From contig CALLKB010000016.1 in NCBI GenBank assembly GCA_938008575.1, positions 1 through 13,867 on the forward strand: a stretch of DNA of 13,867 bases. Reading direction: 5' to 3'. This document shows, piece after piece, positions 8,719-13,867 of this stretch; the first letter of the stretch is position 1; each line of letters begins with the position of its first letter. The notes below the pieces were generated by a model. That model did not search any database. It saw nothing but the letters and a program-made list of their open reading frames with translations, and was not told the origin of the DNA. Both the position numbers and the translations under genes were made by a program. This DNA is from an uncultured Cytophagaceae bacterium. GTDB lineage: Bacteria; Bacteroidota; Bacteroidia; Cytophagales; Spirosomataceae.

Positions 8719-9891
8719 ATGAAAAAGCTCATTCTATTTGCCTTCGCTAGTACGGTACTTTTAAGCTCATGTAGCAAAGAAGAGGCCATGAATCCACAAG
8801 GATTCACAGCAATCAACGCGGCCAATGTACCACAAGCGGTACAATCTACGATCCAACAAAGTTTTCCAACGGCACAAGTAGCCTATTCTGTTATCCAACC
8901 GAATGCCTTGTATGTTGCAGATGTTACGACTCCTTCTACGGAAATGCAAATCGTATTATCATCTAAAGGTTCAATAAAAGAAGCTTTCTCTAAAATTGAT
9001 TCAACGGCATTACCTACGAGTGTATTGACCTATTTATCCACCAATTATCCAGGATACGATTTATTGCATGCATCGCAAAAAACAACGGGTACACCTACGG
9101 GTTACCGAGTTGTATTAAAATATAATTCCGAGTTTTATTCTGTATTATTTGACGAAAAAGGTGCCTTTGTTTCCCAAACGACAGGAATGCCTGGTGGCCC
9201 TAAAGGTGGTAAGGAAAAAGGGAGCCATGGTCCTACCGTTACGAGTTTGACACTTACAGACCTTCCAGCAGCGGTTCAAACGGCATTAAATGGATATACG
9301 TTCCAACGTGCTATGGCAAAAATAAATGACAAAGGAGTGACCATTTACCATGTACATGCAGAGAAAGCAGGTATCGTATATGAATTAGAAATCGCTGCCA
9401 GTGGTACCATTTTAGAAAGTGAGGCACAAGAAGTTAAGCCGATTATTACAAAAGTGGACCTAACAACATTACCAGCTGCCATCACAACCTATTTAAATAC
9501 CAATGCAGTTGGATGGACACTCAAAAATGCAGTGAGTGTTGCGGCTGATAATGTGATCATCCATTACCATGTTGTTGTTTCTGTAGGAGCTACAGTTCAA
9601 ACGTATATGTTTGACAAAGATTTTAAATTGGTTCAAAATGCAGGAAAAGGTCCTAAAGACAATCAAGAGCTTCCTAATTTCACGGTAGCAGAAATCACTC
9701 AAGCCCAAATTCCAGCAGCCGCAATTACATATTTGAATACGAATTATGCGGGTTGGACATTTACGAAAGCCCAAACGGTTTCAGCTGATACAACAGTAAA
9801 AGAATATGAAGTATTTATTGCCGTAGCAGGAAAAAATTACAAAGTTGAATTTGATGGAAACGGCGTTTTCACAGGTGCCAAACTAAAGTAA
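8719..9891 (+). CDS. Lipoprotein with five PepSY-like (DUF2874-type) repeats
   Basis: A 390-residue lipoprotein: signal MKKLILFAFASTVLLSSC with the lipidated cysteine at residue 18, followed by SKEE. The mature part consists of five diverged repeats of about 58 residues, near 36-93, 98-155, 182-238, 251-308 and 331-388. Each starts with a (L/V/I)P-(A/Q/T)-(A/S)-(V/I/A) helix, continues with a YLxTNYxGW-like segment, and ends in beta strands with an (F/L)D-x-x-G turn. This is the pattern of PepSY-like/DUF2874 proteins of Bacteroidota, which occur in the envelope and have no established reaction. Repeats 2 and 4 are each followed by a Gly/Lys/Pro-rich linker (GGPKGGKEKG at 159-168, GKGPKDN at 309-315), which suggests growth by duplication of repeat pairs. 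It is a single-gene unit with a strong terminator downstream. A role in protein-folding or protease inhibition is conceivable but unproven. Confidence 0.85.
   Translation: MKKLILFAFASTVLLSSCSKEEAMNPQGFTAINAANVPQAVQSTIQQSFPTAQVAYSVIQPNALYVADVTTPSTEMQIVLSSKGSIKEAFSKIDSTALPTSVLTYLSTNYPGYDLLHASQKTTGTPTGYRVVLKYNSEFYSVLFDEKGAFVSQTTGMPGGPKGGKEKGSHGPTVTSLTLTDLPAAVQTALNGYTFQRAMAKINDKGVTIYHVHAEKAGIVYELEIAASGTILESEAQEVKPIITKVDLTTLPAAITTYLNTNAVGWTLKNAVSVAADNVIIHYHVVVSVGATVQTYMFDKDFKLVQNAGKGPKDNQELPNFTVAEITQAQIPAAAITYLNTNYAGWTFTKAQTVSADTTVKEYEVFIAVAGKNYKVEFDGNGVFTGAKLK
8824..9882 (+). repeat. Five tandem coding repeats (PepSY-like modules)
   Basis: Five units of about 174 bases lie at roughly 8824-8997, 9010-9183, 9262-9432, 9469-9642 and 9709-9882. 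They are clearest at protein level: LPAAITTYLNTN in unit 4 against IPAAAITYLNTN in unit 5, each followed by GWT(L/F). DNA identity between units is limited, so the duplications are old and recent slippage is unlikely. Confidence 0.75.
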
Positions 9892-9957: not shown

Positions 9958-10533
9958 ATGCAAGAAATCGAACCTTCCTTTCAGTGGGAATCCCTGTACA
10001 ACGCGGCTCACGACCGCAAATCCCCATTTTATGGCAGAAGTTATTCGCAAACCGAATACGAGAACGACATTTATGGTTATTACATTCACCCCCTTTGGGA
10101 TGAGATCGACTCCGAAACACTATATTGCAAAATTCTTTATAGCGATTACGCACAAGGCTATTCCATCATCGAATTATTCGGCGAATGGAACGATACGCTG
10201 CACAACGACATCATGTTGCTTAAAAGGCAAGTTATCGACCACCTCTTAGCTGTTGGGATTAAACATTTTATTTTAATCGGAGAAAATGTCTTCAACTTTC
10301 ATGGAAGCTATGAAGACGATTATTATGCCGAATGGTTCGAAGAAGTGGAAGATGGTTGGATCGTAGGATTGCATTTCGCAACTTTTGTTGAACAAGAATG
10401 GGCCAAATACCATGTCGATTATTACATCAATTTTGGTGGAAATTTGCAGATTCCCAATTGGCGTACCTTGAAACCGGAGATGATTTTTGCCTATTTACAG
10501 CATGTCATGGCGAAGCGACTAGGACCAGCATAA
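9958..10533 (+). CDS. Conserved Bacteroidota protein of unknown function, 191 residues
   Basis: The protein is soluble, acidic and rich in aromatic residues, with no signal peptide or membrane segment. It opens with FQWESLYNAAHDRKSPFYGR, continues through YYIHPLWDEIDS, FGEWNDTLHNDIMLLKRQ (74-91), an FILIGENVFNFH strand-turn (104-115), an acidic stretch EDDYYAEWFEEVEDGW and a C-terminal YYINFGGNLQIPNWRTLKPE segment. I recall similar uncharacterised proteins in Cytophagales but cannot name a domain or a reaction. ATG 9958 is the first in-frame ATG and follows the upstream terminator by 8 bases, so the start and its promoter are unusually close. The next gene is 68 bases downstream on the same strand. 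The strong conservation of W, D, E, N and H residues would fit an enzyme or a nucleic-acid partner, but this is only a guess. Confidence 0.75.
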   Translation: MQEIEPSFQWESLYNAAHDRKSPFYGRSYSQTEYENDIYGYYIHPLWDEIDSETLYCKILYSDYAQGYSIIELFGEWNDTLHNDIMLLKRQVIDHLLAVGIKHFILIGENVFNFHGSYEDDYYAEWFEEVEDGWIVGLHFATFVEQEWAKYHVDYYINFGGNLQIPNWRTLKPEMIFAYLQHVMAKRLGPA

Positions 10534-12302: not shown

Positions 12303-13331
12303 ATGAATTTCGACTATTTAAATAAAGACATTTACGGTCAACCAACACTTACTGAACATCCGAAAGTCAGTATTTGTGTGATTTCATATAATCACCAAAA
12401 CTATGTAAAGACATGTTTAAATAGCATATTAGAACAAAAAGTTGACTTTGCTTTTGAAATCATCTTGGGGGAGGATTGTTCAAAAGATCAAACTGCCGAA
12501 ATCATCATACAATATGCTGACCAATATCCTCACCTCATAAAAGCATATATCCGACAAAAAAATGTAGGAGCCAAAACAAACTTTTTACACTGTTTCCTGC
12601 AATGCAAGGGTGAATACATCGTTTTTATCGAAGCAGACGACTACTGGACTGACCCGCTCAAACTTCAACGCCAAGTTGATTTTTTAGACCAACATCCCCA
12701 TGCATCTGCCTGCTTTCACAATGCGCAAATCATTTTCGAAGATGGGAGCCATCGGGAACCCGTTTTGATTAATCCTATTGACCAAAAACCTTGGGTGGAA
12801 TCCGCCGACTTCCTCGTTGAAAAAGAAACTTGGTTCATGGCAACGGCTGCCGTGATGATGCGAAGAAAATTTGCACATCCGCTTCCAGAATGGTTTTTAC
12901 ACTCGAAAAGTGGTGATATTCCGCTCTATGTTATTTTGGCTGAACAAGGCCCCATTGGCTATTTACCAGAAGTGATGTCCGTCTACCGAAAAAACGAAGG
13001 GGGTATCAGCATGACCGACCATGTCCATGCAGATGCCTTTATTAAAAATCGGATTTTCATGTATTCGAGTATCAATGCCCATACAAAATACAAATACAAT
13101 CACCTCATTAAACCTATCCTGCAGGCATATTACCTAATGCGCATGGATTGCCACGAAAACAAATCCAATAAGGCCAAACAAGCTTTTTATTTCAGTCGGG
13201 CAACACTCCTAAATCCCCCGCGAACCGCGAAGGATTGGAAAAGCTATTTAAAAACGAATTTGTTAAGCCCCAAAAACCTGTTGACCTACCTCAATTTCCG
13301 TTCAAAATTGAATAAAATCATCAAAAGATAA
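12303..13331 (+). CDS. Family 2 glycosyltransferase
   Basis: A 342-residue GT-A fold glycosyltransferase. The N-terminal domain shows VSICVISYNHQNYV (22-35), IILGEDCSKDQT (53-64, nucleotide-sugar binding) and the metal-binding FIEADDYWTDP (108-118); AYIRQKNVGAKTNF and LPEVMSVYRKNEGGIS are also typical. No membrane segment is evident, so it probably acts on the inner face of the membrane in synthesis of a surface polysaccharide or O-antigen-like glycan, together with the propeller protein 4 bases upstream. Donor and acceptor are unknown. The C terminus is basic and hydrophobic (LNFRSKLNKIIKR). Its last seven codons (13311-13331) lie in the stretch that can also be read as the end of the foreign potC fragment, so the true C terminus in the source genome is uncertain. 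Confidence 0.9.
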   Translation: MNFDYLNKDIYGQPTLTEHPKVSICVISYNHQNYVKTCLNSILEQKVDFAFEIILGEDCSKDQTAEIIIQYADQYPHLIKAYIRQKNVGAKTNFLHCFLQCKGEYIVFIEADDYWTDPLKLQRQVDFLDQHPHASACFHNAQIIFEDGSHREPVLINPIDQKPWVESADFLVEKETWFMATAAVMMRRKFAHPLPEWFLHSKSGDIPLYVILAEQGPIGYLPEVMSVYRKNEGGISMTDHVHADAFIKNRIFMYSSINAHTKYKYNHLIKPILQAYYLMRMDCHENKSNKAKQAFYFSRATLLNPPRTAKDWKSYLKTNLLSPKNLLTYLNFRSKLNKIIKR

Positions 13332-13867
13332 GCTAAATGCAAGTAGTGCAGCGCCCGCTATACCAGGGGCCACTAGCGGAAGCGTAACTCTCCTGAATGT
13401 TTGAAATTCATTTGCATACAGATCCATAGCGGCTTGTTCTAACCGGGGATCAAGACTTGCGATACGAGCTTTAACAGTAACAACCACAAATGAGATACAG
13501 AACATTACGTGAGCGATAACAGTTGGCCAGAAGCCAGGGTTGATTTGGAAAACAAGGAAGAGCGAGAGCAGTGATGCACCTAAGACAATTTCTGGGGTTG
13601 CCATAGGTAAGAAAATCAACAAGTTAGATGAAGAACGACCCTTAAAGGCATAACGTCCAATCGCAAAAGCAATCATCGTTCCTAGAATTGTTGAAAAGAC
13701 TGTTGCCAGCAAACCGATTTTGATTGAATTACCAAGAGCTTCGCACACCTCTGGGGCGCCGCATGGGTTCTTCCAATTATCTAGCGTGAATCCTTTCCAA
13801 ACAAGATTGGATTTACCGGAATCATTAAATGAAAAGACAAAAGTGTAGGCAACTGGAATAAAGAGGT
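13302..13867 (-). CDS. potC: Spermidine/putrescine-type ABC transporter permease (PotC-like), partial at both ends, actinobacterial style
   Basis: The frame enters from the right edge of the window (codons from 13865 read LFIPVAYTFVFSFNDSG, then LVWKGFTLDNWKNP), so the GTG at 13748 is internal. It continues with LLATVFSTILGTMIAF, IFLPMATPEIVLGASLL, HVMFCISFVVVTVKAR and the EAA-loop LEQAAMDLYANEFQTFRRV-TLPLVAPGI that contacts the ATPase. This is the inner-membrane subunit type of polyamine importers, and the wording (CGAPEVC, PRLEQAAMDLYAN) resembles actinobacterial PotC. Similarity is clear up to SLSFDDFI at 13311; after that come Q-F and a stop, where the family continues with another 30 or more residues including the last membrane helix. 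The break lies in a 21-base stretch that also encodes the end of the glycosyltransferase. No ATP-binding or partner permease gene is in view. Assembly artefact is the likeliest reason. Confidence 0.85.
   Translation of the reverse strand, partial: LFIPVAYTFVFSFNDSGKSNLVWKGFTLDNWKNPCGAPEVCEALGNSIKIGLLATVFSTILGTMIAFAIGRYAFKGRSSSNLLIFLPMATPEIVLGASLLSLFLVFQINPGFWPTVIAHVMFCISFVVVTVKARIASLDPRLEQAAMDLYANEFQTFRRVTLPLVAPGIAGAALLAFSLSFDDFIQF

What the first reader, a model, noticed from the sequence alone, without database searches (positions are those of the whole stretch)
13302..13867. Probable chimeric join: actinobacterial-type potC fragment fused to a Bacteroidota contig
Seen: a PotC-like frame is coherent from the window edge to 13311 and then stops after two unrelated residues, losing the expected last helix. 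Exactly there, 13311-13331 (21 bases) reads sensibly in both directions, as the end of the glycosyltransferase on plus and as SLSFDDFI of PotC on minus. Known: PotC is about 260-280 residues and continues well past the DDF motif. Inference: two unrelated genomes share a short k-mer-sized identity at which an assembler joined them. The alternative, transfer of a broken gene fragment, is less likely.
Basis: partly seen in the sequence, partly recalled or inferred. Interest (0 to 1): 0.75.

Follow-up and report, generated by a model that had tools for sequence, protein, structure and literature searches.

The report
Chimeric contig: Aquirufa joined to Planktophila
The last half-kilobase of this freshwater Bacteroidota contig almost certainly comes from an unrelated lake actinobacterium and was stuck on by the assembly at a short chance match, so it is an artefact and not a biological feature.

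Summary
On the plus strand the glycosyltransferase (12303-13331) is complete: 342 of 342 residues align at 99% identity to an Aquirufa echingensis protein with the same last residues. On the minus strand, 13865-13311 encodes 185 residues of an intact-looking PotC, up to 97% identical to PotC of acI actinobacteria (Candidatus Planktophila and kin); 80 of 80 acI loci kept align without a gap. In those loci PotC runs on for 54-57 more residues. Identity breaks between 13311 and 13310 (base 13310 differs in 80 of 80). The 21 bases 13311-13331 occur exactly in 4 of 296 genomes of the acI family, each time at this place in potC; the reversed control occurs in 0 of 296. Codon usage separates the potC piece from all 14 other genes tested. 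Chance should give about two shared 21-mers between two genomes of such sizes, and about 0.0005 shared 27-mers. A join at a k=21 node of a short-read assembly is the best explanation. Reads, and Aquirufa DNA at and beyond the join, were not available. Nothing novel.

The parts
12303..13331 (+). Complete family 2 glycosyltransferase gene of an Aquirufa (last undisturbed gene of the host contig)
   Evidence: 99% identity over 342 of 342 residues to Aquirufa echingensis P0121, same C-terminus LNKIIKR; Pfam PF00535 E 1.8e-26
13311..13331 (.). 21-base stretch that fits both sources (NKIIKR-stop on plus, LSFDDFI on minus): the probable join
   Evidence: Exact 21-mer in 4 of 296 acI-family genomes, all at the potC place; in 2 of 80 acI loci (L009, L059); protein-level fit to Aquirufa
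13311..13865 (-). 185 codons of an acI actinobacterial potC (spermidine/putrescine permease), open at the window edge and cut before its last 54-57 residues
   Evidence: 87-97% aa identity to 80 acI loci, ungapped; at most 81% nucleotide identity; NF007047 E 3.6e-50
13302..13310 (-). Spurious end of the potC frame (QF-stop), which is Aquirufa glycosyltransferase sequence read backwards
   Evidence: Base 13310 differs from 80 of 80 acI loci and at most 1 of the next 12 bases agrees

Best explanation
Assembly chimera. Two freshwater bacteria were in one sample: an Aquirufa close to A. echingensis, and an acI actinobacterium of the Planktophila group with no close genome in the held sets. By chance both carry the 21-mer AATAAAATCATCAAAAGATAA, at the end of a glycosyltransferase gene in one and antisense inside potC in the other. 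At the lowest k of a de Bruijn assembly this shared node gave a false path, and a 536-base acI tail was left on the end of the Aquirufa contig. Shown: the two origins, the cut at 13311, that acI potC genes can carry the 21-mer, and the absence of decay. Inferred: that the two source genomes themselves carry the same 21 bases (on the Aquirufa side only protein was seen; the acI source species was not found), that the window end is the contig end, and that the assembler, not the library, made the join.
For: Glycosyltransferase 99% identical to Aquirufa echingensis over its full length. PotC up to 97% identical in protein to acI loci, 80 of 80 ungapped over 185 residues. Identity stops at 13311/13310. 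The 21-mer is in 4 of 296 acI-family genomes, always at the potC place; reversed control 0 of 296. Codon usage: 14 of 14 other genes lean to the window's own usage, PotC leans to acI within the range of 80 acI potC genes. Expected chance shared 21-mers between 1.3 and 2.5 Mb genomes about 2.05, 27-mers 5.5e-4 (sizes assumed). Chimeric contigs from graphs linked by shared k-mers are described, for closely related species (PMC7299287, passages). Both genera are among the most abundant in one river (PMC11916896, passages).
Against: No reads were seen. Aquirufa DNA was not obtained, so the 21-base identity on that side is inferred from NKIIKR-stop; the real overlap could be shorter if a source differs by a synonymous base. 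76 of 80 acI loci differ from the window at 2 or more of the 21 bases, so most acI species would not offer this match. GC content shows no step (0.438 against 0.416).
Confidence: 0.88

Rival explanations
1. The join was made before assembly: a chimeric DNA molecule formed in library PCR, ligation or whole-genome amplification at a short shared stretch, then assembled faithfully.
For: It explains the same two origins and the same short overlap. Short shared stretches in amplification chimeras are recalled, from no call.
Against: The shared stretch of up to 21 bases is close to the usual smallest k of short-read assemblers (recalled), which needs no special library step. Not testable here without reads.
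Confidence: 0.09
2. Real transfer: an Aquirufa genome took up a broken acI potC fragment just behind its glycosyltransferase gene.
For: Both live in fresh water and are among the most abundant genera of one river. The glycosyltransferase is left whole.
Against: No decay: 128 of 128 invariant residues kept, no residue unseen in the 80 loci, no stop. It keeps acI-like codon usage. No DNA match among 72,556 plasmid or 50,697 phage records; junction 30-mer absent from viral contigs. A real insertion would not need acI sequence to fit the last 21 bases of the Aquirufa gene.
Confidence: 0.03

Closest known systems
Inter-genome chimeric contigs of de Bruijn metagenome assemblies (PMC7299287, passages seen)
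   Same: Sequence of two genomes in one contig, joined where the graph shares k-mers
   Different: The passages speak of closely related species or sequencing errors; here the two are of different phyla and share only a chance-length stretch
PotC of Nanopelagicaceae (acI; Ca. Planktophila and kin)
   Same: Up to 97% protein identity, ungapped over 185 residues
   Different: The window's copy lacks the last 54-57 residues; at most 81% nucleotide identity to any acI genome searched
Family 2 glycosyltransferase of Aquirufa echingensis (P0121)
   Same: 99% identity, same length and same C-terminus
   Different: A few substitutions; none in the last residues

Membership tests
Chimeric metagenome contig (assembler join) | Parts on either side of the join belong to different organisms | tested here: met
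   Aquirufa against Nanopelagicaceae; codon usage also differs
Chimeric metagenome contig (assembler join) | Short stretch at the join common to both sources, of about k-mer length | tested here: inconclusive
   21 bases: acI potC genes with the exact 21-mer in 4 of 296 genomes; Aquirufa side seen on protein only
Chimeric metagenome contig (assembler join) | Depth step, or no reads spanning the join | not testable with these tools
   No reads held
Horizontally transferred gene fragment | Signs of residence in the new genome: decay or drift of codon usage | tested here: not met
   128 of 128 invariant residues kept; acI-like codon usage. A very recent transfer would also lack them
Horizontally transferred gene fragment | Same junction in other Aquirufa genomes | not tested
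The junction 30-mer is absent from viral contigs
PotC (NF007047) | Full-length match over the curated cut-off | tested here: not met
   171 bits against 326; model positions 18-201 of 257. It is a fragment of a PotC. Two acI genomes with the whole gene also stay under the cut-off (202-204 bits)

The most novel reading that the evidence does not exclude
A very recent real transfer of an acI potC fragment into Aquirufa across phyla, joined by recombination at a chance identity of about 21 bases.
Probability: 0.03. Interest if true: 0.3.

Novelty: not a real feature. Interest (0 to 1): 0.06.

Why it matters
It matters only as quality control: a gene caller would list a truncated polyamine permease in Aquirufa, and a transfer screen could count it as cross-phylum gene transfer. 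The contig should be cut at 13311-13331. It also illustrates that two bacterial genomes of these sizes are expected to share about two 21-mers by chance.

Tried and rejected
Mobile-element origin: no DNA match of 12303-13867 in plasmids or phages; neither protein has a relative by this scan in viral contigs; the 30-base junction pattern is absent there. tblastn of the PotC fragment against plasmids matched 1572 records, all under 60% identity. A glycosyltransferase like this one as a native acI gene: 74 of 296 acI-family genomes have some match, the best-scoring at 32% identity over residues 4-233, so not supported. Overlap of the window's two ends: none at 21, 27, 33 or 55 bases in either orientation. 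GC content as a discriminator: no step at the join (0.438 against 0.416).

Limits of the counts: one search scored only the 7999 candidates sharing most words and only 8000; the best 120 are listed in each. One search kept 80 of 152 loci. The residue-by-residue junction display covers the 66 of 80 rows without gaps; one search repeats the check on all 80. In one search I chose the starts of MoeA, NIPSNAP and the GH-like gene myself, and the GH-like gene, whose chosen length was no multiple of three, was scored after trimming but never used for training. The genome sizes (1.3 and 2.5 Mb) are assumptions.

Full report
What was claimed.

The frame 13865->13302 ends ...SLSFDDFIQF-stop. It matches NCBIfam NF007047 (PotC) at model positions 18-201 of 257 and Pfam BPD_transp_1 at positions 1-126 of 184. 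Among the 120 listed protein relatives, 118 continue SFDDFI-ITNFNS, one SFDDFI-VTNFNS, and one lacks the motif. In 80 of 80 acI loci 54-57 further residues follow before the stop. So the last part of PotC is really missing.

The two sides have different owners. The glycosyltransferase at 12303-13331 is 99% identical over all 342 residues to a protein of Aquirufa echingensis on a 601,830-base contig, and both end ...LNKIIKR. Its 15 best relatives are all 342 aa and end in register. Near the other end of the window, the thiamine pyrophosphokinase gene has its best match (98%) in a protein without a name; the first hits that name a genus are Aquirufa (74-75%), followed by Flectobacillus and Siphonobacter among other Bacteroidota. 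This fits Aquirufa or a near relative, but the species is not confirmed for that end. The PotC piece is 87-97% identical in protein to the 80 acI loci kept, the two best being an Actinomycetota MAG and a Ca. Planktophila MAG. 242 of 296 genomes of that family match it at DNA level, the best at 81%. Its exact source species is therefore not in the set searched. Taxonomy: Aquirufa is Bacteroidota, Flectobacillaceae; Planktophila is Actinomycetota, Nanopelagicaceae.

The cut. Of 80 blastn rows between the window's minus strand and acI loci, 52 end at 13311, 27 at 13312 and 1 at 13289; the last is a gapped alignment of L062. Base 13310 differs from the window in 80 of 80 loci, and of the 12 bases from there on none (54 loci) or one (26 loci) agrees. 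The 21-mer 13311-13331 occurs exactly in 4 of 296 acI-family genomes, and all 4 places are the ends of the potC matches (G068, G137, G227, G288); the same pattern read backwards occurs in 0 of 296. Among the 80 loci 2 have it exactly, 2 differ at one base and 76 at two to seven. So acI potC genes can carry this 21-mer, though most do not. The Aquirufa side is shown only on protein (NKIIKR-stop), because no Aquirufa DNA could be fetched; if either source differs by a synonymous base, the true overlap is shorter than 21.

Composition. Codon models were made from 346 acI ORFs (120,526 codons; ORFs with PotC motifs left out) and from the other window genes, each gene left out in turn. 14 of 14 window genes score towards the window's own usage (0.028 to 0.144 per codon). 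PotC scores towards acI (-0.065), within the range of the 80 acI potC genes (-0.172 to -0.009). GC content shows no step (0.438 against 0.416).

No sign of residence. The fragment keeps 128 of 128 columns invariant in the 80 loci and has no residue that none of them has. Against its nearest locus, 10 of 94 changed codons are nonsynonymous (0.11); that is above the mean between acI nearest neighbours (0.06) but within their range (0 to 0.17; the 59 loci whose nearest neighbour has 60 or more differences). An untended fragment in a foreign genome would be expected to decay, unless the transfer is very recent. No plasmid or phage DNA record matches 12303-13867, and the junction 30-mer is not in viral contigs.

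Why 21 bases. With the base compositions seen and assumed genome sizes of 1.3 and 2.5 Mb, chance should give about 2.05 shared 21-mers between two unrelated genomes, but 5.5e-4 shared 27-mers and 1.5e-7 shared 33-mers. Chance identity of just this length is therefore expected at k=21. That 21 is a usual smallest k of short-read metagenome assemblers is recalled, from no call. A review describes graphs linked by shared k-mers producing chimeric contigs, speaking of closely related species or sequencing errors (PMC7299287, passages). Both genera are among the 20 most abundant in the main river of one watershed survey (PMC11916896, passages), so a shared sample is natural.

Verdict. The finding is an artefact, correctly recognised. 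I put 0.88 on an assembler join, 0.09 on a library chimera and 0.03 on real transfer. Reads would settle it.

Noticed in passing
L003, L006, L009, L011, L034, L052, L055 (titles: Bifidobacterium breve); L017, L045, L067 (titles: Streptomycetaceae bacterium): Record titles name Bifidobacterium breve or Streptomycetaceae for MAG contigs whose potC is 92-96% identical in protein to the acI-type query. The titles look like wrong organism labels on acI MAGs.
   Followed up: no
protein P0125 (relative of window 12303-13331): This glycosyltransferase relative looks mosaic: its first third resembles other Aquirufa paralogues such as P0136, the rest is nearly identical to the window's protein (sequences). 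It may reflect recombination between paralogues, or another chimera.
   Followed up: no
protein P0002 (relative of window 13311-13865): A PotC from a 1,211-base contig holds RSSSNLLIFLPMAT twice in a row, possibly a small assembly error.
   Followed up: no
9958-10533: 191-aa protein with no Pfam family at E 0.001.
   Followed up: no
8719-9891: 390-aa lipoprotein-like protein with PepSY_like similarity (PF11396, E 9.8e-17) and several similar stretches in a row as read by eye.
   Followed up: no
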